Of a stretch of DNA of 61,019 nucleotides, positions 12,824-38,749 are shown piece by piece. The DNA lies in the IMG/VR virus record IMGVR_UViG_3300020171_000029, positions 1 through 61,019 of that record, one strand, 5' to 3'. This DNA comes from a virus. Both the position numbers and the translations under genes were made by a program. The number at the start of each line of letters is the position of its first letter. Position 1 is the first letter of the stretch. The notes beneath the pieces were generated by a model, which did no database searches, was not told the origin of the DNA, and worked only from the letters and a program-made list of their open reading frames with translations.

Positions 12824-14152
12824 TTACAATCCAAATATTGGTAAAGGACTCTTTATCTTCACATTCCTAACACCAAATATATTATTTTTATTAGAATTAA
12901 ACTTTCCATAATTACAATAATTCCTGATATCTAATGAAAACTTTCTTGGTGTCTCAATTATACTAATATTATTCAATTTACAAAATTCTTCATAATTATA
13001 AAATAAATCAGAATTTGATGTCCAATAACCATTTTCATTAATTAAACACTCTATACAAAACTTTGCTACTGAACTTGCTTCACCTAACATAATCCTTCTA
13101 TTCTCTTCCCAATCTCTTCTATATGAAAAATAACCTTTTTCTAACAATCTATCCAAACCTTCTAATGCCCAATTAAGCAATCCAGACATTTCATTGTTAG
13201 TTATCAAACTATGAATAATATTAACATTTGTATTTTTATTATCTTTATCAAAAATATTATCAAAATCAAAAATCATCCATCTATTCCAATATGCTTGGTC
13301 GTCTACATCTGATTTTATTGCTGGAACTTTATTACAAGAAAAACTTAACTTAGCATAATTTTCAAAATCAAACCCATCACCAAATTTAGCTTCAGCCCTT
13401 ATAGAACTTCTACCTGTAACTTGTTTAAATGTTCCACTATCTGTAATATCCTTTTCAGATAAATCATCACAAATATTTGCATTCTTATTATAAAGTGGAA
13501 CAAGTTGCCATTTTCCTTGAGCTAATAATTGCAAACTTATACTACTACAATTTTCACTACCAACAAAATTTTTAAGTAAATTCATAAATGTTGTTTTTCC
13601 AGTATCTGGAACTCCACGAAATATAGATGCTTTCTTTATAAAATACTCTCTATAAAGTTGATATCCAAACCACTCTTGAACACACTCAATGTCTTCTGGA
13701 ATTAGTATATCATTTAAAAATGTAAAAACATTTTTACAATAAGCTTCAGGAATATATTCAATTAATAGTTTATTCATAAACATATACTTATCAGAATGTT
13801 CAAGTAATTTTTTTGTTTTTAAATCCAACACTCCATTTTTCAAACATATTAAATTCTTATCTCTACATCCCAATTTATTCCTATCAATTTTTGTTAATCT
13901 TTCAATCTTATTCTTAATTTCAGTAATAATATATGTTTTTGCTGCTTCTTCTAAAATATCTTCCGCTTCTTTTTCTATAATATCTTTTCCTTTTTCAATA
14001 AAAACACCATCTATATAAACATAAATTTCATTCATCTTTTTTCCTGAAATAGTTTTAAAAATATATTTCTTCATTAAATATTTTGCAATAAAATCATAAA
14101 TTTCAGAAGCAGGTCTTTTCATCAAAAACATTTGCTGAATTTTATCTTTCAT
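12824..14152 (-). CDS. SF3 (D5-like) replicative helicase
   Basis: A 442-residue ATPase. Residues 100-111 hold 'LICLKNGVLDL', characteristic of the D5_N region; Walker A 'RGVPDTGKTTFMN' at about 179-191; 'NANICDDLSEKD' as Walker B; 'LSFSCNKVPAI' as the sensor (motif C) segment. Such helicases unwind viral DNA as hexamers. In poxvirus and P4-type proteins a primase domain precedes; here the N-terminus is short and the primase is a separate gene at 31337. Start overlaps the Sm-like gene. Confidence 0.85.
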   Translation of the reverse strand: MKDKIQQMFLMKRPASEIYDFIAKYLMKKYIFKTISGKKMNEIYVYIDGVFIEKGKDIIEKEAEDILEEAAKTYIITEIKNKIERLTKIDRNKLGCRDKNLICLKNGVLDLKTKKLLEHSDKYMFMNKLLIEYIPEAYCKNVFTFLNDILIPEDIECVQEWFGYQLYREYFIKKASIFRGVPDTGKTTFMNLLKNFVGSENCSSISLQLLAQGKWQLVPLYNKNANICDDLSEKDITDSGTFKQVTGRSSIRAEAKFGDGFDFENYAKLSFSCNKVPAIKSDVDDQAYWNRWMIFDFDNIFDKDNKNTNVNIIHSLITNNEMSGLLNWALEGLDRLLEKGYFSYRRDWEENRRIMLGEASSVAKFCIECLINENGYWTSNSDLFYNYEEFCKLNNISIIETPRKFSLDIRNYCNYGKFNSNKNNIFGVRNVKIKSPLPIFGL

Positions 14153-18363: not shown

Positions 18364-19146
18364 ATGGCATGGGATAATTTAGCAGAAAAAACAGAAGTGA
18401 AAGAGCAAGAAAAACCAAAAACAAGTATCTTATTTAAAAATCTTTCAGAAGCCAAACAAGATAGAGGAATAAAAATACTTTCATATGGCAACTTCTCAAC
18501 AGGTAAAACGCATTTCGCATTATCATCAGATAAACCAGTTTATATAATTGATACAGAAAATGGTGCATCGCCTTTAGCAAATAAATTTCCAGATGCAAAA
18601 GTTATAAACATTTGTAATACTGATTTTGAATCTGTTGAAGAAAAAGATGAAGTAAAAAACTTTGAGAATTTTCAAGATACAATTAATTATCTTATGAGCA
18701 TTCCTGACAATGAAATTGGAACAATCATAATAGATAGTATATCAGATATTTGGACTTGGTGTCAAGGATATTGTAAAATTAAAATATTTAAATTAAATAT
18801 AGAAGACAGATTAAAACAAAGATTTGATTGGGGAATTATAAACAATATGTTCAAAAAACCAATAATGAAATTGATTAATAAAAATTGTAACGTAATTTTT
18901 ACAGCAAGAGAAAGTGATATTTATGATAACGCTTCTGGACCAAGTGGAAGAGTAAAAGCAGATTGTCAAAAAAGAGTTCCATTTTATGTTGATGTAGTGT
19001 TGAGACATGAATTAAAATTTATAAATAAGCAATTTCAATTTCAAGTAAAAATAGAAAAATGTCGTGAAAATGGAAAAATAATTGGAAAAACAATAGTAGA
19101 TTTAAATTTAGAAAAATTAAAAAACTTAATAAAAGAAAATGAATAA
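18364..19146 (+). CDS. Sak4-like RecA-fold ATPase
   Basis: A 260-residue P-loop ATPase: Walker A 'SYGNFSTGKTHFAL' near residues 39-52, 'PVYIIDTENG' after it, and Walker B-like 'GTIIIDSISDIW'. This matches the Sak4/AAA_24-type single-strand annealing and recombination ATPases of tailed phages, which act with a single-stranded DNA-binding protein. The ssDNA-binding candidate lies 800 nt upstream. Its 3' end overlaps the homing endonuclease-like gene. Confidence 0.8.
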   Translation: MAWDNLAEKTEVKEQEKPKTSILFKNLSEAKQDRGIKILSYGNFSTGKTHFALSSDKPVYIIDTENGASPLANKFPDAKVINICNTDFESVEEKDEVKNFENFQDTINYLMSIPDNEIGTIIIDSISDIWTWCQGYCKIKIFKLNIEDRLKQRFDWGIINNMFKKPIMKLINKNCNVIFTARESDIYDNASGPSGRVKADCQKRVPFYVDVVLRHELKFINKQFQFQVKIEKCRENGKIIGKTIVDLNLEKLKNLIKENE

Positions 19147-19774
19147 AGGATATAATCATAAAGAAAATTGTATTTGTAAATTATGTATTGGAAAAACTTC
19201 ATTTAAAAAAGGATTTGATAAAAGAAGAACCAACGGATTTCAAAAAGGTAATAAATTATTTGTAGGTAAAAATAATCATATGTTTGGTAAAAAAAGAAGT
19301 TGTTCCTGGACATCAGAAAGAAATAAAAAACAAGTAGGAGAATTAAATCCATTTTATGGAAAACATCATACAGAAGAATCGAAATTTAAACAGATTATTT
19401 CAAAAATTAGAAATAATAAATATAAGTTTAATCCAACTGAAAAATATTATTTAGATTTAAAAATGAAGTTTAAAAGCAATTGGGAAGCTAATATGGCAAG
19501 AATTTTTAATTTCTTAGAACTAACTTGGTATTACGAACCACAAATATTTAAATTAAAAAGTTCTTTTTATTGTCCTGATTTTTATATAAAAGATTGGAAT
19601 TGTTTTATTGAAGTTAAAGGATATATGTATCCTAAAAGCTTACAAAAAATAAATGAATTTAAAGAAAAATATCCAATAGAAATTATATCATCTAAAGAAT
19701 ATAAAAGTTGGTGTAATGATTTTCCATTACAAATTAAAGAATTGTCAAAAGGAGAAAAAAATGATAAAATTTGA
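19139..19774 (+). CDS. NUMOD3-containing VSR-like homing endonuclease
   Basis: A 211-residue protein. The N-terminal half has NUMOD3-like repeats: 'NHMFGKK' and 'GELNPFYGKHHTEESK', found in DNA-binding parts of homing endonucleases. The C-terminal half has 'FKSNWEANMARIFNF', 'WYYEP', 'YCPDFYIKDWNCFIEVKGY', giving the D-x(n)-E-x-K core of VSR/EDxHD-type nucleases. It is a free-standing selfish gene inserted between the ATPase and small genes. Confidence 0.8.
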   Translation: MNKGYNHKENCICKLCIGKTSFKKGFDKRRTNGFQKGNKLFVGKNNHMFGKKRSCSWTSERNKKQVGELNPFYGKHHTEESKFKQIISKIRNNKYKFNPTEKYYLDLKMKFKSNWEANMARIFNFLELTWYYEPQIFKLKSSFYCPDFYIKDWNCFIEVKGYMYPKSLQKINEFKEKYPIEIISSKEYKSWCNDFPLQIKELSKGEKNDKI

Positions 19775-23564: not shown

Positions 23565-24244
23565 AAATCGAAAAAAAATTTCTGGAAATCCCATTTGATT
23601 GTATAAAAGATTTAATTATAGAACCTTGTCTTAAATTCAATTCTGAAGGAATGTTCATAACAGCATTTGCAGAATCTAATGCAGCATTGTGTTTGTTTAA
23701 ACTGCCAAAGGAAAAATTCGTTCAATATGAATTTTTAGAAGAACAAAAATTCAAAATTAGTTCAGAACTTCTTGCAAAGATTATGAAGCGAATCAAAACG
23801 CAATTTGTAAATCTGGATTTTAAAGATGAAAAGTTTATAATATCTGATGAGAATAAAAAGGAATATTCAATCGCAGTTATGCATGATGATGAGGTTGAAA
23901 GGAATGTCCCACAGCTTGAGTTAAAATCCAATTTTAAAATGATAAGCTCTGAATTACAAAATTTGTTTTTAGATGCAGGTATAATAGGCGATGATATAAA
24001 ACTTGAAACAAAAGGAAAAATAATTATTTCTTCTGGAGAATTAAACAAGTTTAATCAGGAAGTTGAATGTGAAGTTGTTGGAGAGGCACAATCCATTTAT
24101 AGTTTAGAATATCTTAATAAGTTTATGAATGCTTCAAAATATTTTAAAGATGTTTTGTTTGAGTTTGATTCTAATAGTCCTTGCAGATTAACTTTTAAAG
24201 ATGAATTGGAAATTCAATTTGTTTTGGCGCCAAGAGCTGAGTAA
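23561..24244 (+). CDS. pcn: PCNA-type sliding clamp
   Basis: A 227-residue DNA sliding clamp. The C-terminal half is typical: 'SIYSLEYLNKFMNASKYFKD', then 'VLFEFDSNSPCRLTF' and the ending 'FVLAPRAE', as in archaeal PCNA. The N-terminal half has 'LLAKIMKRIKTQFVNLDFKD' in place of the usual loop. Slightly shorter than the usual 245-250 residues. It should tether the viral split PolB and perhaps other PIP-box proteins. A viral clamp without a visible clamp loader implies use of the host loader. Confidence 0.88.
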   Translation: MKIEKKFLEIPFDCIKDLIIEPCLKFNSEGMFITAFAESNAALCLFKLPKEKFVQYEFLEEQKFKISSELLAKIMKRIKTQFVNLDFKDEKFIISDENKKEYSIAVMHDDEVERNVPQLELKSNFKMISSELQNLFLDAGIIGDDIKLETKGKIIISSGELNKFNQEVECEVVGEAQSIYSLEYLNKFMNASKYFKDVLFEFDSNSPCRLTFKDELEIQFVLAPRAE

Positions 24245-24257
24245 GGATTTTTATAAA

Positions 24258-24923
24258 ATGGAGAGTGAATTATTACCTACAAATGAAGAACCAATTAAGA
24301 TTATTAATGCTGATTGTCTTGAGGTTTTGAAGAAACTTCCTGATAATTGTATTGATTTGGTTTTAACAGACCCACCTTATGGAATAAATCAAGATAAAGG
24401 GATTCAATTATATACAAAAGCATCTTCCAAACATACAGTAAAAAAATATAAAGATAATTGGGATTCAAAAACACCTTCTAAAGAGATTTTTGATGAAATA
24501 TTAAGAGTGGGGAAAAAAGTTATTATTTTTGGAGGTAATTATTTTATAGATAAATTGCCATTTAAAACATCTTGGATTATATGGGATAAAATAGGTAATA
24601 TAAAATTTAATGATACTTTCACAGATGTTGAAATGGCATGGACTAATTTTGATAGAAATATATCTAAAAAATATATTTGTATTCAACATGGTTTTGTTTC
24701 TGAAGAAAGAAAAAGAGAACATCCAACCCAAAAACCAGTTAAATTATTTAGAAATATTATAAAAGATTATTCAAAAGAAGGAGAGCTTATCATGGATTGC
24801 TTTCTCGGCTCAGGAACAACAACAATTGCATGTAAACAATTAAACAGAAAATGTCTTGGAATAGAAATATCAAAAAAATATTGTGATATTGCAAAAAAGA
24901 GATTACAACAGGGAGTCTTATAA
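24258..24923 (+). CDS. Beta-class DNA methyltransferase (DPPY)
   Basis: Start at ATG 24258 since the earlier in-frame ATG lies in PCNA. DPPY ('LVLTDPPYGIN') comes near residue 40 and the SAM motif 'MDCFLGSGTTTIACKQLNRK' near residue 180, so the order is the beta class of N6-adenine or N4-cytosine methyltransferases. 'HPTQKPVKLF' precedes motif I as usual. No partner endonuclease is adjacent. Confidence 0.85.
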   Translation: MESELLPTNEEPIKIINADCLEVLKKLPDNCIDLVLTDPPYGINQDKGIQLYTKASSKHTVKKYKDNWDSKTPSKEIFDEILRVGKKVIIFGGNYFIDKLPFKTSWIIWDKIGNIKFNDTFTDVEMAWTNFDRNISKKYICIQHGFVSEERKREHPTQKPVKLFRNIIKDYSKEGELIMDCFLGSGTTTIACKQLNRKCLGIEISKKYCDIAKKRLQQGVL

Positions 24924-25075
24924 TGGTATGCCCGAGCAGAAAAAATTTAATGATATGCAAAATAATTAAAGATAAAAAAACGAAGAAAAAAGAAGTTAAA
25001 CCAAAAGAAAAGATAATAGAAGAAGAACATCAAAAAAGATTAAAAAAATTAAAAGAAATGGGATTTAAAATATGA
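24923..25075 (+). CDS. 50-residue lysine-rich protein
   Basis: ATG 24923 overlaps the previous stop (TAATG) and TGA overlaps the next ATG. Very lysine-rich (DKKTKKKEVKPKEK), ending 'LKKLKEMGFKI'; the last segment could be a short interaction motif. Function unknown. Confidence 0.5.
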   Translation: MVCPSRKNLMICKIIKDKKTKKKEVKPKEKIIEEEHQKRLKKLKEMGFKI

Positions 25076-25578
25076 AAAAATTAGCAATACAAATGGGAGG
25101 AAGAAGTGATGAATTTCATACTCCAAAATATGCAATAAAACCATTACTACCTTTTTTAAAAAAGAATTGGATTATATGGGAATGTGCTTGGGGAAAAGGA
25201 AGTTTAGCAGAACATTTAGAAAAAGAAGGATTTAAAGTAATTGGAGATAGTGATGTAGATTTTATTAAAGTTTCTTATATGGATCATTCAGATTGTTTAG
25301 TTACAAATCCACCTTACTCAAAAAAAGATGAATTTTTGAAAAAAGCATTTGAATTAGGAAAGCCATTTGCATTTCTTATGCCATTAACAGCATTGGAAGG
25401 AATAAAAAGAGGAGAATTATTTAGAAGATATGGAATACAACTTATAATTCCAAATAGAAGAATAAATTTTATAACTCCTTCTGGAAAAGGAAGTGGAGCT
25501 TGGTTTCAAACTGCTTGGTTTTGTTGGGGATTAAATTTGCCAAAGGATTTAAATTTTGTAGAATTAGAAAAAGAATGA
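25072..25578 (+). CDS. NPPY methyltransferase-like protein
   Basis: A 168-residue Rossmann-like protein with 'WECAWGKGSLAEHLEKEGFK' as a SAM-binding motif and 'CLVTNPPYSKKDEF' as motif IV. Alpha/gamma-like order. Related small NPPY proteins in phages are annotated as adenine methyltransferases; target may be DNA or tRNA. 'PFAFLMPLTALEG' follows. Short for a DNA enzyme with its own recognition domain. Confidence 0.7.
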   Translation: MKKLAIQMGGRSDEFHTPKYAIKPLLPFLKKNWIIWECAWGKGSLAEHLEKEGFKVIGDSDVDFIKVSYMDHSDCLVTNPPYSKKDEFLKKAFELGKPFAFLMPLTALEGIKRGELFRRYGIQLIIPNRRINFITPSGKGSGAWFQTAWFCWGLNLPKDLNFVELEKE

Positions 25579-25919
25579 AAAAATTAGCAATATTCGACAT
25601 AGAAACAGATTCACTAATCATAGAAGAAGCACAAATAAAATTCATAGGGATTCTTGATTTACAAACTAATGAATATAATATAATCCAATATAAAGAACCA
25701 AAAGAAATTAAAACAATATTGAACAATTATGATTTCATAATCACATTCAACGGTGAGCAATTTGATATACCAATATTAAAAAGGCACAGAATAATTATCC
25801 CAGATTATAAACATATTGACTTATATAAAGTTTTTAAGAAGAAGGCGCCATTGCTTTGTTCTGGCGGGTTTAAGAGTTATAGTTTGAATAATATCACAAA
25901 GGAGATTGAGAAGTTATGA
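25575..25919 (+). CDS. polB: DNA polymerase B, N-terminal part of the 3'-5' exonuclease
   Basis: A 114-residue protein from ATG 25575 (overlap with the previous stop). Exo I 'FDIETD' at residues 7-12 and Exo II 'FNGEQFDIP' around 58-66 are intact. It ends after 'GGFKSYSLNNITKEIEKL', the point just before Exo III of PolB. Exo III is found at the start of the separate gene at 26898, so the proofreading domain is divided between two proteins that must associate if active. Confidence 0.85.
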   Translation: MKKLAIFDIETDSLIIEEAQIKFIGILDLQTNEYNIIQYKEPKEIKTILNNYDFIITFNGEQFDIPILKRHRIIIPDYKHIDLYKVFKKKAPLLCSGGFKSYSLNNITKEIEKL

Positions 25920-26170
25920 TAAAAGAATTTAAAATAAAAAAAGAAAATCAGTTTAAAGATTTTAATGGTTTAACAACCATTTCTATTCAAGCATATAAAG
26001 AAAATAATCTATTTGGTATTGAATTTATAAAATTTTTTGAATTAAGAGATTATAATGGACATACATCACACCATTTTATAAAAACTATTAAATCAGAAAA
26101 TATCAACATAGATTTAGAATTTAAAAATATTTCTCAAGAATTAATAAATTTAAAAAGGGATATTAAATGA
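25916..26170 (+). CDS. 84-residue protein inserted within the PolB locus
   Basis: Overlaps the exonuclease gene by 4 nt (ATGA) and the methyltransferase by 4 nt. Beta-rich start ('IKKENQFKDFNGLTTISIQA'), acidic end. No domain recognised. It lies between the two PolB genes; it could be a subunit bridging them or a passenger with the methyltransferase. Confidence 0.55.
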   Translation: MIKEFKIKKENQFKDFNGLTTISIQAYKENNLFGIEFIKFFELRDYNGHTSHHFIKTIKSENINIDLEFKNISQELINLKRDIK

Positions 26171-26901
26171 TGGAAATAAATAAAGTTATTTATGGTGATT
26201 ATTTGGAAGAAATGAAAAAGTTACCAAATGAAAGTATAAATTTAATTCTTACAGACCCTCCTTATGGGATAAATTTTCAATCTGGACACAGAAAACAAGT
26301 TAGTAATGTTAAATTTAATAAATTTAAATTAGATGATAATTTATTATGGTATGAATTATTTTATGATGAATGTATGAGAATTTTAAAAAATGATTCTTTT
26401 ATGTATATTTGTTTTAGATTTGATAGTTTATTTGAAATAGCAAAATTATTTGGAGATAAAGTAAAGCCATTTAAAGTTTTAATTTGGGATAAAATGGATT
26501 ATGGAATGGGAGATTTGAATTTTTTTTCTGTATCTTATGAAATTATTTTATGTTATAAAAAAAGAAATCCAAAGTTAATAAATTATGATAAACGTCCAAA
26601 TGGTATTTTTAGAATACCAAAAGTTCAAAATTTTAGATGTAAAGAAAATAAACCAACAGGAGATAAAAATCAAGATTTTATGTTACATCCAACACAAAAA
26701 CCATTAGAACTTATGAAAAGAATAATAAGTGTGTCATCAAAAGAAAATGATTTGATTTTAGACCCGTTTGCAGGAGGAGGTTCTACATTAATAGCATCAA
26801 AAATGTTAAAACGAAATTATATTGGAATAGAAATAGATGAAAAATATTGTGATGTAATTCAAAAACGATTAAATAAAGAAAATAAACAAATGATATTATG
26901 A
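26167..26901 (+). CDS. Beta-class DNA methyltransferase in the PolB locus
   Basis: A 244-residue enzyme with 'LILTDPPYGINF' near residue 35 and 'LILDPFAGGGSTLIASKML' near 200, beta-class order; 'HPTQKPLELMKRI' precedes. Likely N6-adenine or N4-cytosine. It sits between the two halves of DNA polymerase B and overlaps both neighbours by 4 nt. Confidence 0.88.
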   Translation: MMEINKVIYGDYLEEMKKLPNESINLILTDPPYGINFQSGHRKQVSNVKFNKFKLDDNLLWYELFYDECMRILKNDSFMYICFRFDSLFEIAKLFGDKVKPFKVLIWDKMDYGMGDLNFFSVSYEIILCYKKRNPKLINYDKRPNGIFRIPKVQNFRCKENKPTGDKNQDFMLHPTQKPLELMKRIISVSSKENDLILDPFAGGGSTLIASKMLKRNYIGIEIDEKYCDVIQKRLNKENKQMIL

Positions 26902-28313
26902 AAAAAGAAAAAATTAATTATAAAATATTTCAAAAAGATGAATGGACACAAGAAGAACTACAAGAAATAAAAAAATATCTTAAACAAGATTTAAACCTCA
27001 CAAAAGACCTATGGCAGTTCCTAATAAAAAAATTCGACTCACTTAAAGAATTCATACCACAAAAAGATGCAGAAAACTTTAAACACATAACAATGTCAAG
27101 CGGAGCATATGGATACAAGGTTATCTGCCATCTGTTGGGATTAAAAGAAGAATATAATAATATTAATGGAAATCCCCATTATGAAGGAGCCTATGTGATG
27201 CAGCCAAAAGAGGAAACGTTAAAAGGGAACATTCTATGCTTTGATTTTGCATCGCTTTATCCGATGATGTATGTCCATGCAAATTTGTTTTCTCATGATT
27301 GTAAGTGCTGCAAGCAAGAAGAAAAATGGCATGGTAATGAAAGTTTTAAAGTAGAAGGTTATTATTGTTCAAAACAACAAGGAAAGATAGAAGAATTGGT
27401 CAAAGAATTTTATATGAAAAGAAAATTATACAAGTTAGAAAAAGATAACAGACAATTTGCTATAAAAATAGTTCTTAATTCTCTTTATGGGATTTCCGCA
27501 AAACCATCATTTAAAAATCTTTATAATAAAAATATTGCAAGTGATTGCACGGCATTGGCAAGGCAATGCATTCATTATGCCATAAAGAAATTTGAAGATA
27601 ATATGTATGATATTGTTTATTCCGACACAGATTCTGTTTTTATAAATCTAAAAAATTATCAGAAAAAAGAACTTTGCATGCAATTGGCAGAAGAAATATC
27701 AATAGAAATAAGCAGACAATTTCCTTTTCCATTTGATGAGTTTAGTTTAAGTATTGATGATGAGATAAAGTATCTGCAATTTTTTATTGGTAGAGATGAG
27801 CAGTTGAATAAAAAGCATTATCTTTATATAAACAAAGATGATAAATTAAGGATAAAAGGATTGGATATTATAAAAAAAGATTGCAGTGAATTAAGTCAAA
27901 AAATATTTAATGATTTTTTAAAAGAAGATATTATAAAAAATTTAAATTGTAAATTTGATAGGGATTTTATGGATAATAAAATTAATGAAATTATAAAACA
28001 AGATAAAACGATTATTGCAAAGCGATTTAATATAAAATCATTAAAAAATTATAAGTCAAAAACTTCTATTTATTATCTTATTGGAGAGAAATATGGAAGT
28101 GGTGAGATTTTATTGATAAAAAATTATAAATTTGGTGCTGGAAAAAGGATTAAATATTGTTCTATAGATGAAGCAAAAAATTTAGATGTTGGTGATTTGA
28201 ATTTAGAAGATATTTATAAAGAATTGGGAGTTTTTATAAAAGATTATAAAGTTGAAAAGGTTAAGAAAGAAAAGAAGATTAAAAAAATTAAATCAAAGCA
28301 AATGGAATTATGA
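26898..28313 (+). CDS. polB: DNA polymerase B, Exo III and polymerase part
   Basis: A 471-residue protein. Exo III 'YLKQD' at residues 27-31, 'YEGAYV' (YxGG/A region) at 95-100, motif A 'DFASLYP' at 116-122, motif B 'KIVLNSLYG' at 190-198, motif C 'YSDTDS' at 241-246. A cysteine cluster (residues 135-157) interrupts the segment between motifs A and B. With the 114-residue protein at 25575 it makes one PolB enzyme of a short viral type. All catalytic aspartates are present. C-terminus is lysine-rich and may hold a clamp-binding motif. Confidence 0.92.
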   Translation: MKKEKINYKIFQKDEWTQEELQEIKKYLKQDLNLTKDLWQFLIKKFDSLKEFIPQKDAENFKHITMSSGAYGYKVICHLLGLKEEYNNINGNPHYEGAYVMQPKEETLKGNILCFDFASLYPMMYVHANLFSHDCKCCKQEEKWHGNESFKVEGYYCSKQQGKIEELVKEFYMKRKLYKLEKDNRQFAIKIVLNSLYGISAKPSFKNLYNKNIASDCTALARQCIHYAIKKFEDNMYDIVYSDTDSVFINLKNYQKKELCMQLAEEISIEISRQFPFPFDEFSLSIDDEIKYLQFFIGRDEQLNKKHYLYINKDDKLRIKGLDIIKKDCSELSQKIFNDFLKEDIIKNLNCKFDRDFMDNKINEIIKQDKTIIAKRFNIKSLKNYKSKTSIYYLIGEKYGSGEILLIKNYKFGAGKRIKYCSIDEAKNLDVGDLNLEDIYKELGVFIKDYKVEKVKKEKKIKKIKSKQMEL

Positions 28314-28897
28314 ACTGTATAGAAGAAATTTGGCAATTACATAGAAATAGTAAATCTTATACTGGTGCATATCCAGAAGGATATATAAGAAATGTTGATA
28401 AACTTATAACATTAACAGGAAAAAAAGTTTTACATTTATTTGGCGGTATTACAAAAGAAGATAAAAATAATCATACAAATGATACAAAACAAGAAAAAGC
28501 AACATTTCATTTTGATGCAAGAAAAAAATTTCCGATTAATGATGAAGAATATGATGTTGTTATGTGCGACCCTCCTTATGATTTAGAAGAAAATTTTATA
28601 CATTTATCAGATAAGAAAAAGAGATTGCATTATGGAAAAAATCTTTATGATACTCCATTTGTTCCACCATATAGTTTTATAGATGAAGCAGTTAGAGTTT
28701 GTAAACATAAAGGATTTATATGTGTTTTGCATTTTTTAGTTTATAAAATTCCAAAAGGAACTAAAAGATATGCATTAATTCCAATTATTTCTGGTCCTAA
28801 TTTAAGAATAAGATGTTTAAGTATATTTCAAAAAATAAATAATAATGAAGAAATACAAATTTTAAACAAAAAATTAATACAACAAAAATTAATATGA
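28310..28897 (+). CDS. DPPY methyltransferase-like protein
   Basis: A 195-residue SAM-fold protein with 'VLHLFGGITKED' as a possible motif I, 'DEEYDVVMCDPPYDLEENF' as motif IV, then 'FIDEAVRVCKHKGFICVLHF'. Likely a DNA or RNA adenine/cytosine-N methyltransferase. Overlaps PolB and the following cytosine methyltransferase by 4 nt. Confidence 0.65.
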   Translation: MNCIEEIWQLHRNSKSYTGAYPEGYIRNVDKLITLTGKKVLHLFGGITKEDKNNHTNDTKQEKATFHFDARKKFPINDEEYDVVMCDPPYDLEENFIHLSDKKKRLHYGKNLYDTPFVPPYSFIDEAVRVCKHKGFICVLHFLVYKIPKGTKRYALIPIISGPNLRIRCLSIFQKINNNEEIQILNKKLIQQKLI

Positions 28898-29481
28898 AAA
28901 TACTAAATTTATATGCAGGAATTGGAGGAAATAGAAAACTTTGGGGAGATGAACATGAAGTTACTGCAATTGAAATTAATCCAGAGATTGCTGGGATATA
29001 TAAATACAATTTTCCAAATGATAAAGTAATAGTTACAGATGCTCACCAATATTTATTGCAGCATTATCAAGAATTTGATTTTATCTGGAGCAGTCCACCT
29101 TGTCCAACACATAGTAGATTATGTTTTAGCCAACCAATTAAGAATTATCCAGACATGACTTTTTATCAACAAGTTATTTTATTAAAAAGCTGGTTTAAAG
29201 GAAAATGGGTTGTTGAAAATGTAATACCTTATTATGAAGCATTAATTAAACCAACTTTTGAATTAGGAAGGCATCCTTTTTGGAGTAACTTTAATGTTAA
29301 TAAAATAGAATTTAAGAATATTGATGTAAGTCGTTCAACAGCAGAAGAACTTTCAGAATATTTAGATATGCCTATACCAAGAATAAAAGCAAGATTATTA
29401 TTAAGAAATTGTATAGAACCTAAAATGGGTTTACATATTTTTAATTGTGCTTTTAAAAAAAGACAAGGAGTTTTAATATGA
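28894..29481 (+). CDS. Short m5C DNA methyltransferase-like protein
   Basis: A 195-residue Dcm-type protein: 'LNLYAGIGGNRKLWG' (motif I), 'WSSPPCPTHSRLCF' with the Pro-Cys nucleophile (motif IV), 'GKWVVENVIPYYEAL' (ENV, motif VI). It lacks most of the target recognition domain and later motifs of a full enzyme (usually over 300 residues), so it either uses another specificity factor or belongs to the small phage family. Confidence 0.75.
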   Translation: MKILNLYAGIGGNRKLWGDEHEVTAIEINPEIAGIYKYNFPNDKVIVTDAHQYLLQHYQEFDFIWSSPPCPTHSRLCFSQPIKNYPDMTFYQQVILLKSWFKGKWVVENVIPYYEALIKPTFELGRHPFWSNFNVNKIEFKNIDVSRSTAEELSEYLDMPIPRIKARLLLRNCIEPKMGLHIFNCAFKKRQGVLI

Positions 29482-31065: not shown

Positions 31066-31340
31066 GATATTTGAATATTGAACAATTAGAGTTAAAAGCG
31101 AAAAGTAAAAATAAAAGTAAACAAAACAGGACATTAACTACAATCATTAGAGCAAGAAGGATTTTAAAAATATTACAAAGAGATAATTTTATGTGTGTCA
31201 AATGCAAAGCAAAAGAAAAATTAACAATCGACCATATTGATGGAAGAAAATTTGCAAAACACGATAATGCAAAAAAATATAAATTAGATAAGTGTCAGAC
31301 ATTATGTATAGAATGTCATGATAAAAAGAATCAAAAATGA
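31062..31340 (+). CDS. HNH endonuclease
   Basis: A 92-residue protein with 'CVKCKAKEKLTIDHIDGRKF' and 'LCIECHDKKNQ': complete HNH motif with four cysteines. Basic N-terminus. Overlaps the RNA ligase and primase genes by 4 nt. May be a free-standing homing-type nuclease. Confidence 0.85.
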   Translation: MRYLNIEQLELKAKSKNKSKQNRTLTTIIRARRILKILQRDNFMCVKCKAKEKLTIDHIDGRKFAKHDNAKKYKLDKCQTLCIECHDKKNQK

Positions 31341-32236
31341 TATATGAAGTAGGACTACCAAGAAAAACAATCAATTCAAAGAAAGAAGAAGCAGATTTTA
31401 TAAACAAGTATAATGGTATGAAGGCAATTTATAGAACAGTTTATAATTTTGAATTAATGAATGATTATAAACCAGACTATAATTCAGCAATAGTAAACAA
31501 ATTATTCTTCGATTTTGATGATAATGATTGTTGGAATGAAGCAAATAGACTTCATCAATTTTTGATAAAAGAAAATATAAAACATTACATCATAATGAGT
31601 GGAAAAGGATATCATATTTTTATATTGACAAAAGATTATAAACCACAGAATTTGAAAAGTTGTATTTATAATTCACAACATTATTTTATAGACAAATTAA
31701 ACCTAAAATGCGACTCACAAGTTGTTGGTGATAATGCAAGACTTCATAGAATACCAAATACTTATAATGTGAAGGCAAAGAGATTTTGTATTCCAATAAC
31801 AAAAGAACAATTTAAATCAGGTGACATAATTATAAAACAAGCAGCACAATATCAGAATTTTATAAAAAACATTTCTATAGGAACAGAGCTATTCGATGTT
31901 TCAAGATATGATTATAAATCAGATAAATTTAGTGATAAAATTATTGTTGACAATTCTAATTTTGAAAATAATTTGAATGCAGATTATGCAACTAAATCTC
32001 CTAACTTTATAAAACAATTATTATTGAAAAGGGATGCAGGATGGAATGATAGATATTTATTAATTTTATTTTTTCGTGATTCTGGATATACAAGAGAAGA
32101 AGTGTTCCAAATTCTAAAAGACAATCTTACAGAAAGGAAATTTAAGCATTGTGTTTATGAAGAGAGACAATTACAATATTTGTTTGAGAGATACGACTTA
32201 TGTTTTCCAGAGAAGTATTGTAAGATATATAAATAA
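31337..32236 (+). CDS. Archaeo-eukaryotic-type primase
   Basis: A 299-residue primase/prim-pol. 'KLFFDFDDND' near residue 55 carries the catalytic D-x-D, 'YIIMSGKGYHIFIL' the SGxH motif, and 'ARLHRIPNTYN' the third basic/His region. These match the small primase family used by archaea and many of their viruses. The C-terminal part ('YTREEVFQILKDNLTERK') is a PriCT-like helical region. It supplies the primase missing from the SF3 helicase. Confidence 0.8.
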   Translation: MIYEVGLPRKTINSKKEEADFINKYNGMKAIYRTVYNFELMNDYKPDYNSAIVNKLFFDFDDNDCWNEANRLHQFLIKENIKHYIIMSGKGYHIFILTKDYKPQNLKSCIYNSQHYFIDKLNLKCDSQVVGDNARLHRIPNTYNVKAKRFCIPITKEQFKSGDIIIKQAAQYQNFIKNISIGTELFDVSRYDYKSDKFSDKIIVDNSNFENNLNADYATKSPNFIKQLLLKRDAGWNDRYLLILFFRDSGYTREEVFQILKDNLTERKFKHCVYEERQLQYLFERYDLCFPEKYCKIYK

Positions 32237-37189: not shown

Positions 37190-37365
37190 AATACGAAAAT
37201 ATGATACACGGAGAAACTATTAGAACAATAATGAATAGAAATAAATGCGACCCAATTAAATTCAATATGATGTTCTGTGATGAATACATGATGCAGAATT
37301 GTAAGATGACTTGTGAGTATGCAATCAAAATGAGTAAATTAGAAGAAGGAGTGAAATATGAATAA
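37186..37365 (+). CDS. 59-residue four-cysteine protein
   Basis: ATG 37186, overlaps by 4 nt upstream and 8 nt downstream. Methionine-rich; cysteines in 'RNKCDP', 'FCDEY', 'NCKMTCEY'. May bind metal. Directly precedes the thiamine-enzyme alpha gene. Confidence 0.5.
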   Translation: MKYENMIHGETIRTIMNRNKCDPIKFNMMFCDEYMMQNCKMTCEYAIKMSKLEEGVKYE

Positions 37366-38041
37366 AAAAGAATTGGTAGATTTTGAAAAGAATATTATTA
37401 AAGAATTTAAAAAAGGAGAAACATATGGACCGGTTCATCTTTCAGGAGGAAATGAAGATGCTCTTATAAAAATATTTAAAAAAGTTAAACCACAAGACTG
37501 GATATTCTCAACTCATCGCTCGCACTATCATGCTCTATTAAAATCACAAGATAAAAAATGGCTTACCGATGAGATTATAAAGAATGCAAACTCAAGTCAT
37601 ATTAATTCAAGAACACATAAAATATTTACATCAGCAATTGTTGGTGGAATAATTCCGATTGCTCTTGGTGTTGCTATGGGAATAAAAAGAAAGTGGGAAA
37701 TACCTTGTTTAGACAAGGATGGAAAAGTAGATGTTGAACCAAACCATAAAGCTCATGTTTGGTGCTTTGTAGGAGACATGGCATCAGAGATGGGATGTTT
37801 TCATGAAGCAATAAAATATGCTAATGGAAATAAATTACCTATAACTTTTATAATAGAAGATAATGCTATTGGATGTAACTCTCCAACTAAAAAAGTTTGG
37901 GGAGGAAGAACATGGGGATGGCCATCTAATGTTATACATTATACATATGTTAGATATTATCCTCATTACGGAATTGGTGAATGGGTTATATTTAAGAAAA
38001 AGAAATTTAAATCACAAGGAGATTATAATGCTTATAAATAA
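37358..38041 (+). CDS. Thiamine-diphosphate enzyme, E1-alpha/transketolase N-like subunit
   Basis: A 227-residue protein. 'WIFSTHRSHYHALL' (substrate histidine region), 'GGIIPIALGVAMG', and the ThDP motif region 'VGDMASEMGCFHEAIKYANG' with 'FIIEDNAIG' match the alpha subunits of 2-oxoacid dehydrogenase or transketolase-type enzymes (G-D-x-A ... N). Shorter than full E1-alpha. Its beta partner is at 38201. In a sugar cluster the pair may transfer a two-carbon unit to a sugar. Confidence 0.8.
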   Translation: MNKKELVDFEKNIIKEFKKGETYGPVHLSGGNEDALIKIFKKVKPQDWIFSTHRSHYHALLKSQDKKWLTDEIIKNANSSHINSRTHKIFTSAIVGGIIPIALGVAMGIKRKWEIPCLDKDGKVDVEPNHKAHVWCFVGDMASEMGCFHEAIKYANGNKLPITFIIEDNAIGCNSPTKKVWGGRTWGWPSNVIHYTYVRYYPHYGIGEWVIFKKKKFKSQGDYNAYK

Positions 38042-38204
38042 ATTTATTAATTTAGGGAATGGTTATTTAGATATAACAAAAATTATTGGTATTTGGAAAC
38101 AAGAATCAATGGATTATCCATATATTGTTTTATATGGTAATGGAAGAATTGGAATAACTCAAAGAGATTTTATTAAATTAAAAAAAGAATTAAAATTAAA
38201 ATGA
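38028..38204 (+). CDS. 58-residue protein between the thiamine-enzyme subunits
   Basis: ATG 38028 behind AAGGAG; overlaps the alpha gene and, by ATGA, the beta gene. 'YIVLYGNGRIGITQRDFIKL' is beta-rich. Nothing recognised; the overlaps suggest it is translated with the two subunits. Confidence 0.55.
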   Translation: MLINKFINLGNGYLDITKIIGIWKQESMDYPYIVLYGNGRIGITQRDFIKLKKELKLK

Positions 38205-38749
38205 ACAATAAAAAATATCAAGAAAACTTATGTAAAGCAATGACAATGCTCGGAAAAGAAGAGAAATCAATATTCATAGGACAAACAATTGTTTATGGCG
38301 GTAGTCCAATGTATGGAAGTTGTGAAGGAGTTCTAAAAGAAAAGAAAATTGAAATGCCAGTCTTCGAGGATACTCAAATGGGAATATCAATAGGATTAGC
38401 ATTGGAAGGATTTATTCCAATAAGTATTTTTCCAAGAATAGATTTTTTGATATGTGCGACAAATCAACTTATAAATCATTTAGATAAAGTTGAAGAGATG
38501 TCAAAAGGAGAATGGAAACCCGGAGTTATTATTAGAACACAAATTGGAAATATAAAACCTCTATATCCTGGAGCACAACATTGTCAAGACCATTATGTTG
38601 GATTAAAAGCAATGTGTAAACATATCGAGGTTTTTAAAATAGAAAATGAAGATGAGGTAATACCTTCATATAGAATTGCATTAAGAAGAGCTAAACAAGG
38701 AAAATCTACTTTGTTAATAGAAATTCCTACCGGAGTATTTGGAAAATGA
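38201..38749 (+). CDS. Thiamine-diphosphate enzyme, E1-beta/pyrimidine-binding subunit
   Basis: A 182-residue protein resembling the pyrimidine-binding domain: 'MPVFEDTQMGISIGLALEGF' with the catalytic glutamate region (E-x-x-M-G/E-x-A-x-G), 'PISIFPRIDFLICATNQLIN', and 'GAQHCQDHYVGLKAM'. The C-terminal third domain of full E1-beta is missing. Works with the alpha subunit at 37358. Confidence 0.8.
   Translation: MNNKKYQENLCKAMTMLGKEEKSIFIGQTIVYGGSPMYGSCEGVLKEKKIEMPVFEDTQMGISIGLALEGFIPISIFPRIDFLICATNQLINHLDKVEEMSKGEWKPGVIIRTQIGNIKPLYPGAQHCQDHYVGLKAMCKHIEVFKIENEDEVIPSYRIALRRAKQGKSTLLIEIPTGVFGK

What the first reader, a model, noticed from the sequence alone, without database searches (positions are those of the whole stretch)
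25575..28313. DNA polymerase B split inside its exonuclease domain by a methyltransferase cassette
Exo I and Exo II motifs are encoded by a 114-residue gene (25575-25919); Exo III (YLKQD) and the polymerase motifs by a 471-residue gene (26898-28313). The two halves are continuous in alignment (first ends ...NNITKEIEKL, second starts just before Exo III). An 84-residue gene and a beta-class DNA methyltransferase, both with 4-nt overlaps, sit between. A break within one catalytic site means trans-complementation of the proofreading centre, or loss of proofreading. The 84-residue protein may bridge the halves.
Basis: partly seen in the sequence, partly recalled or inferred. Interest (0 to 1): 0.85.

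Follow-up and report, generated by a model that had tools for sequence, protein, structure and literature searches.

The report
DNA polymerase split inside proofreading site
In one virus, probably of tiny archaea, the gene for the DNA-copying enzyme has been cut in two within its error-correcting centre by two inserted genes, one of them a DNA methyltransferase, although about 27 related loci keep it in one piece; the halves still carry every catalytic residue and probably reassemble as two proteins.

Summary
Window 25575-25919 (114 aa) encodes Exo I and Exo II, and 26898-28313 (471 aa) encodes Exo III plus the polymerase. They are the two halves of a minimal family-B polymerase with no N-terminal domain. 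Between them, with 4-nt overlaps, lie an 84-aa ORFan and a beta-class N4/N6 DNA methyltransferase. I found 27 related loci (about 24 distinct) encoding the whole enzyme in one open frame. Two further relatives carry inteins at motif A. The window's break is exact. It falls in a predicted loop between two helices, and the spacing from the last exo helix to the Exo III tyrosine is 11+26=37 residues, as in the closest single-chain relatives. Of 155 uncut PolB frames on fetched loci, only the window and a split-intein case lack the N-terminal part. No intron or intein signature was found. All five exo-half residues invariant in 22 relatives are kept, plus Tyr27/Asp31 of Exo III, so a proofreading site assembled from two chains is likeliest (inferred, not shown). 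Split viral polymerases are known from T4-like phages. New here are the break between Exo II and Exo III and a methyltransferase as interrupter. Nothing supports a bridging role for the 84-aa protein. The case rests on one metagenomic contig.

The parts
25575..25919 (+). Exonuclease half of PolB (114 aa): Exo I Asp8/Glu10, Exo II Asn59/Asp64, conserved Asp82; ends right after helix SLNNITKEIE, before Exo III
   Evidence: Pfam RNase_H_2 2.9e-13, matched by 17 of the 23 members of the exo alignment A8, this protein included; tblastn to the N-terminal part of single-chain relatives down to 1e-13; AlphaFold2 pLDDT 92.5, DnaQ/DEDD fold
25916..26170 (+). 84-aa ORFan inserted between the halves
   Evidence: No Pfam, NCBIfam or significant PHROG match; no relative in viral contigs, phages or the PolB relatives; twofold codons as poor in C as the methyltransferase
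26167..26901 (+). Beta-class N4/N6 DNA methyltransferase, DPPY and FAGGG motifs intact
   Evidence: PF01555 1.5e-39, phrog_67 2.7e-58; 36% identical to the window's own methyltransferase at 24201-24923
26898..28313 (+). Polymerase half of PolB (471 aa): Exo III Tyr27/Asp31, palm, fingers, thumb
   Evidence: DNA_pol_B 1.4e-28; 34-46% identical to single-chain relatives from about its residue 1 onward
25916..26898 (+). Interruption: the junction corresponds to the point between residues 117 and 118 of relative L111, inside a predicted 12-residue loop
23561..24244 (+). PCNA-like sliding clamp, syntenic neighbour of PolB
   Evidence: NCBIfam sliding clamp 6e-25; the same order PCNA-PolB in L101 and L120

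Best explanation
In the lineage of this tailed archaeal virus, two genes (an 84-aa ORFan and a DNA methyltransferase) entered the PolB gene at a tolerant surface loop of the exonuclease domain, between Exo II and Exo III, without net loss or gain of coding residues. Shown by sequence: the halves are colinear with single-chain relatives, their neighbours are conserved, and start and stop codons overlap so that all four genes can be translated in series from one message. Inferred: the 114-aa and 471-aa proteins associate non-covalently through the natural interface of the RNase H-like exo fold (the sheet and helices of the exo half against the Exo III helix of the pol half). This would rebuild a working polymerase whose proofreading centre takes three acidic residues from one chain and the fourth (Exo III Asp31) from the other. 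The methyltransferase is probably an unrelated passenger in a region rich in such genes.
For: 27 related loci (about 24 distinct) are single-chain. The exo half matches directly upstream of the pol half in the same frame of relatives. The spacing from the exo helix to the Exo III Tyr is 37 residues (11+26), equal to the closest single-chain relatives L109 and L110 and within the family range 37-41. The break is in a predicted loop, with helices intact on both sides. The exo half folds at pLDDT 92.5 with relatives' alignment and matches T7 pol, Tgo PolB and DnaQ exonucleases. All 5 residues invariant in 22 relatives are kept; Tyr27 and Asp31 are invariant in the family. If the exo half had drifted without selection since the split, keeping these 7 sites would bound that drift to roughly 0.43 substitutions per site at 95%; this is my estimate, not a fitted model. 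The ratio of exo to pol branch length (1.84) lies within the single-chain range 0.37-1.86. Use of C-ending twofold codons agrees between the exo half (9/30) and the first 157 codons of pol (14/49) and differs from the insert (5/99; p=6e-4 and 1e-4). Precedent: Aeromonas phage 25 gp43A and gp43B co-purify with polymerase activity, and split NrdA of phage Aeh1 is fully active (PMC2988022).
Against: No biochemical data and only one contig. The window's exo branch is the longest of 23, and some second-shell positions conserved in 20-21 of 22 relatives have changed (Leu to Ala, His to Tyr, Arg to Lys). The exo gene tree alone groups the window with L111/L112 at low support (66), not with L109/L110 as the pol tree does; the shared history is not rejected (pAU 0.098). 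A complex could not be modelled with these tools.
Confidence: 0.66

Rival explanations
1. The exo half is a recent, decaying remnant: the 471-aa protein works alone as a polymerase without proofreading.
For: The exo branch of the window is the longest in the family and several near-invariant second-shell residues have changed. The pol half carries palm, fingers and thumb complete.
Against: All universally invariant exo residues, an intact 114-codon frame with its own start in a coupled operon, and the family-typical spacing are kept. The exo/pol rate ratio is within the single-chain range.
Confidence: 0.2
2. The exo half has left the polymerase and serves with another partner that supplies the missing fourth acidic residue.
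For: DEDD exonucleases occur as separate subunits in phages, e.g. Acidovorax phage ACP17.
Against: It lacks Exo III and so cannot complete the DEDD site alone. Neither the 84-aa protein nor the methyltransferase shows an Exo III motif in a DnaQ context. The pol half still keeps Tyr27/Asp31, which have no known use except with Exo I and Exo II.
Confidence: 0.06
3. The coding sequence is rejoined after transcription or translation by an intron or a split intein, so the mature enzyme is one chain.
For: The ends align almost seamlessly with relatives, and family members L123 and L176 carry a contiguous and a split intein at motif A.
Against: No intein motifs at either end. Rfam finds no intron in 25400-27200 at E up to 10 and nothing in the whole window. 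The 5' 300 nt of the insert folds no better than shuffles (z 0.24). The insert is filled by two ORFs, leaving no room for a group I core, and the exo frame has its own stop.
Confidence: 0.04
4. The arrangement is an assembly chimera or sequencing artefact.
For: Single metagenomic contig; the insert differs in composition from the exo half; no reads available.
Against: Both junctions are exact 4-nt start/stop overlaps of intact genes, as at nearly every joint of this operon. No coding residue is lost or duplicated. The insert's codon usage matches the flanking genes of the same virus.
Confidence: 0.04

Closest known systems
Split gene 43 (PolB) of T4-like Aeromonas phages 25 and 44RR2.8t
   Same: A tailed-virus family-B replicase gene broken into two adjacent genes by inserted DNA; the products co-purify and polymerise (PMC2988022)
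   Different: Phage 25 gp43A (498 aa) carries the whole exo domain and motif A, and the break is in the fingers; the interrupter is a seg-like homing endonuclease. Here the break is between Exo II and Exo III and the interrupter is an ORFan plus a methyltransferase
Split NrdA of phage Aeh1 (mobE insertion)
   Same: Insertion in a functionally critical region; two polypeptides rebuild one active enzyme (PMC2988022)
   Different: Another enzyme; the interrupter is a homing endonuclease
Split archaeal PolB3 of Methanobacteriales and Nanoarchaeum equitans
   Same: Archaeal family-B polymerase from two genes
   Different: Attributed to intein history or trans-splicing by a split intein (PMC4104785); no intein at the window's break
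Fractured genes with split inteins (e.g. PolB of phage MIJ3; relative L176 here)
   Same: A viral PolB gene interrupted by another gene
   Different: Protein splicing restores one chain (PMC6892783); no splicing element in the window
Phage 'DNA polymerase exonuclease subunit' families (phrog_403, phrog_192; phage ACP17)
   Same: A separately encoded DnaQ-like proofreading protein
   Different: The ACP17 subunit carries Exo I, II and III complete; the window's exo half lacks Exo III
OM43-phage DNA polymerases split by a small ORF (MEP401/MEP402)
   Same: Replicase in two genes with an unknown small ORF between (PMC10580990)
   Different: Bacterial phages; break position not examined here

Membership tests
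Family-B DNA polymerase | Motifs A, B and C of the polymerase domain | tested here: met
   DFASLYP, NSLYG and YSDTDS present in 26898-28313; PF00136 1.4e-28
Family-B DNA polymerase | 3'-5' exonuclease domain with Exo I, II and III in one chain | tested here: not met
   Exo I and II in 25575-25919, Exo III in 26898-28313
Family-B DNA polymerase | N-terminal domain before the exonuclease | tested here: not met
   Absent in the window and in single-chain relatives, which start close to Exo I; a family trait, not caused by the split
Minimal PolB family of these viruses (L012, L092-L122, L173-L175) | Homology over the whole chain and conserved neighbours (PCNA, PDDEXK, glycosyltransferases) | tested here: met
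Split PolB restored by intein | Intein N and C splicing motifs at the break | tested here: not met
   Exo half ends NNITKEIEKL, pol half starts MKKEKINYKIF; no Cys/HN motifs
Intron-interrupted polymerase gene | Group I or II intron at the break | tested here: not met
   No Rfam match; z 0.24
Homing-endonuclease-split gene | Endonuclease gene inside the insert | tested here: not met
   Insert holds a methyltransferase and an ORFan only; a NUMOD3 endonuclease lies 5.8 kb upstream
Two-subunit replicase with trans-assembled exonuclease site | Physical association and 3'-5' exonuclease activity of the complex | not testable with these tools
   No complex prediction or bench work available

The most novel reading that the evidence does not exclude
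A replicative polymerase whose proofreading active site is shared between two separately translated proteins, so that the amount of the 114-aa subunit (or a partner such as the 84-aa protein) could tune replication fidelity during infection.
Probability: 0.12. Interest if true: 0.8.

Novelty: new variant of a known kind. Interest (0 to 1): 0.52.

Why it matters
Known natural breaks in family-B polymerases that I could check spare the exonuclease domain or are healed by protein splicing. A break between Exo II and Exo III would put one metal-binding carboxylate of the proofreading site on a different chain from the other three. If the halves assemble, this is a natural test of how far a proofreading domain can be divided. 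It would give a simple two-plasmid system to switch proofreading on and off in a 585-residue archaeal-virus polymerase, and it shows gene fission by an ordinary methyltransferase insertion rather than by an intron, intein or homing endonuclease.

Tried and rejected
Unrelated-exonuclease idea: rejected, the exo half matches the N-terminus of the same PolB family. Pol half with a hidden complete exo domain: rejected, only 4 codons of upstream open frame. Intron: rejected. Intein: rejected by inspection of both ends. Compact insert-flanking repeats: only AT-rich chance-like matches, including a 14-nt imperfect inverted pair near both ends, not followed up. Relatives of the 84-aa protein: none. 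The single-sequence scan with the exo half in viral contigs found none because patterns from one sequence are too strict; the alignment-based pol scan found the family instead. Different origin of the exo half by recombination: the exo tree hints at it, but the AU test does not support it. The genome search offers no relatives for a virus record. Structure prediction of a two-chain complex was not possible.

Full report
The window is a 61,019-base virus record. It is a tailed archaeal virus: terminase, HK97-type capsid protein, portal and tail proteins together with a PCNA-like clamp, a PriS-like protein, PolB and a Sak4-like protein. A relative with the same gene order (PCNA, PolB, PDDEXK-like nuclease, two glycosyltransferases) lies on a 61-kb contig of a Candidatus Pacearchaeota genome (L101), so a DPANN host is likely but not shown.

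The 114-aa protein has Exo I and Exo II and stops before Exo III; the 471-aa protein starts 26 residues before Exo III Tyr27/Asp31 and contains the polymerase motifs.

Relatives settle what it is. Alignment-based scans found 27 related loci (about 24 distinct after near-identical pairs: L012, L092-L095, L097-L101, L109-L122, L173-L175) with exo and pol in one open frame of 582-662 codons. They start close to Exo I, so the family lacks the usual N-terminal domain. The exo half of the window matches the segment immediately upstream of the pol match, E down to 1e-13. L096 is cut by its contig end. L123 has a contiguous intein at motif A and a uracil-DNA-glycosylase domain in front. L176 is broken at motif A by a split intein. 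Among 155 uncut PolB frames on all fetched loci, only the window and L176 lack the N-terminal part; L094 and L095 appear in that list only because their first ATG is late, but their frames run through Exo I.

The break is precise. In single-chain relatives 37-41 residues separate the serine of the last exo helix from the Exo III tyrosine, and 37 do so in the closest ones (L109, L110); the window has 11 + 26 = 37. The break maps between residues 117 and 118 of L111, inside loop 114-125 of its AlphaFold2 model (pLDDT 90.4; best solved matches 9N, KOD and Tgo polymerases). The exo half alone, predicted with relatives' alignment, gives a confident DnaQ/DEDD-like fold ending with its last helix (pLDDT 92.5).

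The halves share a history. C-ending twofold codons are similar in the exo half (9/30) and the first third of pol (14/49), and rarer in the insert (5/99) and in flanking genes (22/272). The pol tree places the window with L109/L110; the exo tree is weakly different, but the same placement is not rejected (pAU 0.098).

Function is inferred. Every exo-half residue invariant in 22 relatives is kept (Asp8, Glu10, Asn59, Asp64, Asp82), and so are Tyr27 and Asp31 on the other chain. The exo half evolves fast, but the ratio to its pol half (1.84) is inside the range of single-chain relatives (0.37-1.86). Neither half can complete the proofreading site alone. The simplest reading is non-covalent reassembly, as reported for split gene 43 and split NrdA of T4-like phages (PMC2988022). 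A recent split with a decaying exo half remains possible, because no close relative is available for a dN/dS test.

How the insert arrived is unknown. It has no intron, intein or endonuclease. The region is rich in methyltransferases (24201-24923, 25072-25578, 26167-26901, 28310-28897, 28894-29481), and 26167-26901 is 36% identical to 24201-24923, so local gain or duplication of methyltransferase genes is plausible. A free-standing NUMOD3 endonuclease-like gene, similar to the endonuclease part of the L176 split intein, lies at 19139-19774; any role in the insertion is speculation. The 84-aa protein has no detectable relatives, so the proposed bridging role rests on position alone.

Compared with what is known, split viral and archaeal family-B polymerases exist. 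In Aeromonas phage 25 the first fragment holds the whole exo domain and motif A; archaeal cases are tied to inteins (PMC4104785); phage exonuclease subunits such as that of ACP17 carry Exo I-III complete. A break within the exonuclease site is the new feature among the cases I could check. The open-access literature searched here is incomplete, and the original paper on gene 43 insertions was not available.

Noticed in passing
L176:3800-6945: Related PolB broken at motif A by a split intein whose N-terminal gene ends in an endonuclease-like domain; the two genes overlap by 13 nt.
   Followed up: partly
L123:5131-7977: Related PolB with a uracil-DNA-glycosylase domain fused in front of the exo domain and a contiguous intein at motif A.
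   Followed up: partly
window 19139-19774: Free-standing NUMOD3 endonuclease-like gene, 46% identical over 71 aa to the endonuclease part of the L176 split intein.
   Followed up: partly
window 24201-29481: Five DNA methyltransferase-like genes of different classes packed around the two PolB halves.
   Followed up: partly
window 26898-28313: Strong gradient in C-ending codons along the pol half: high in the first 80 codons, near zero at the 3' end.
   Followed up: partly
C-termini of relatives (L092, L093, L095, L096, L097) versus window 28280-28313: Relatives often end in a motif like (Q)xxLxxW, possibly a PCNA-binding box; the window ends KSKQMEL without the aromatic residue.
   Followed up: no
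window 37358-38749: Dehydrogenase E1/thiamine-diphosphate enzyme-like gene (37358-38041) followed by a possible beta subunit, within a large block of glycosyltransferase and sugar-metabolism genes.
   Followed up: no
window 31337-32236 and 12824-14152: PriS-like primase and D5-type helicase encoded as separate genes far apart, whereas related PHROG models are longer and appear to join them.
   Followed up: no
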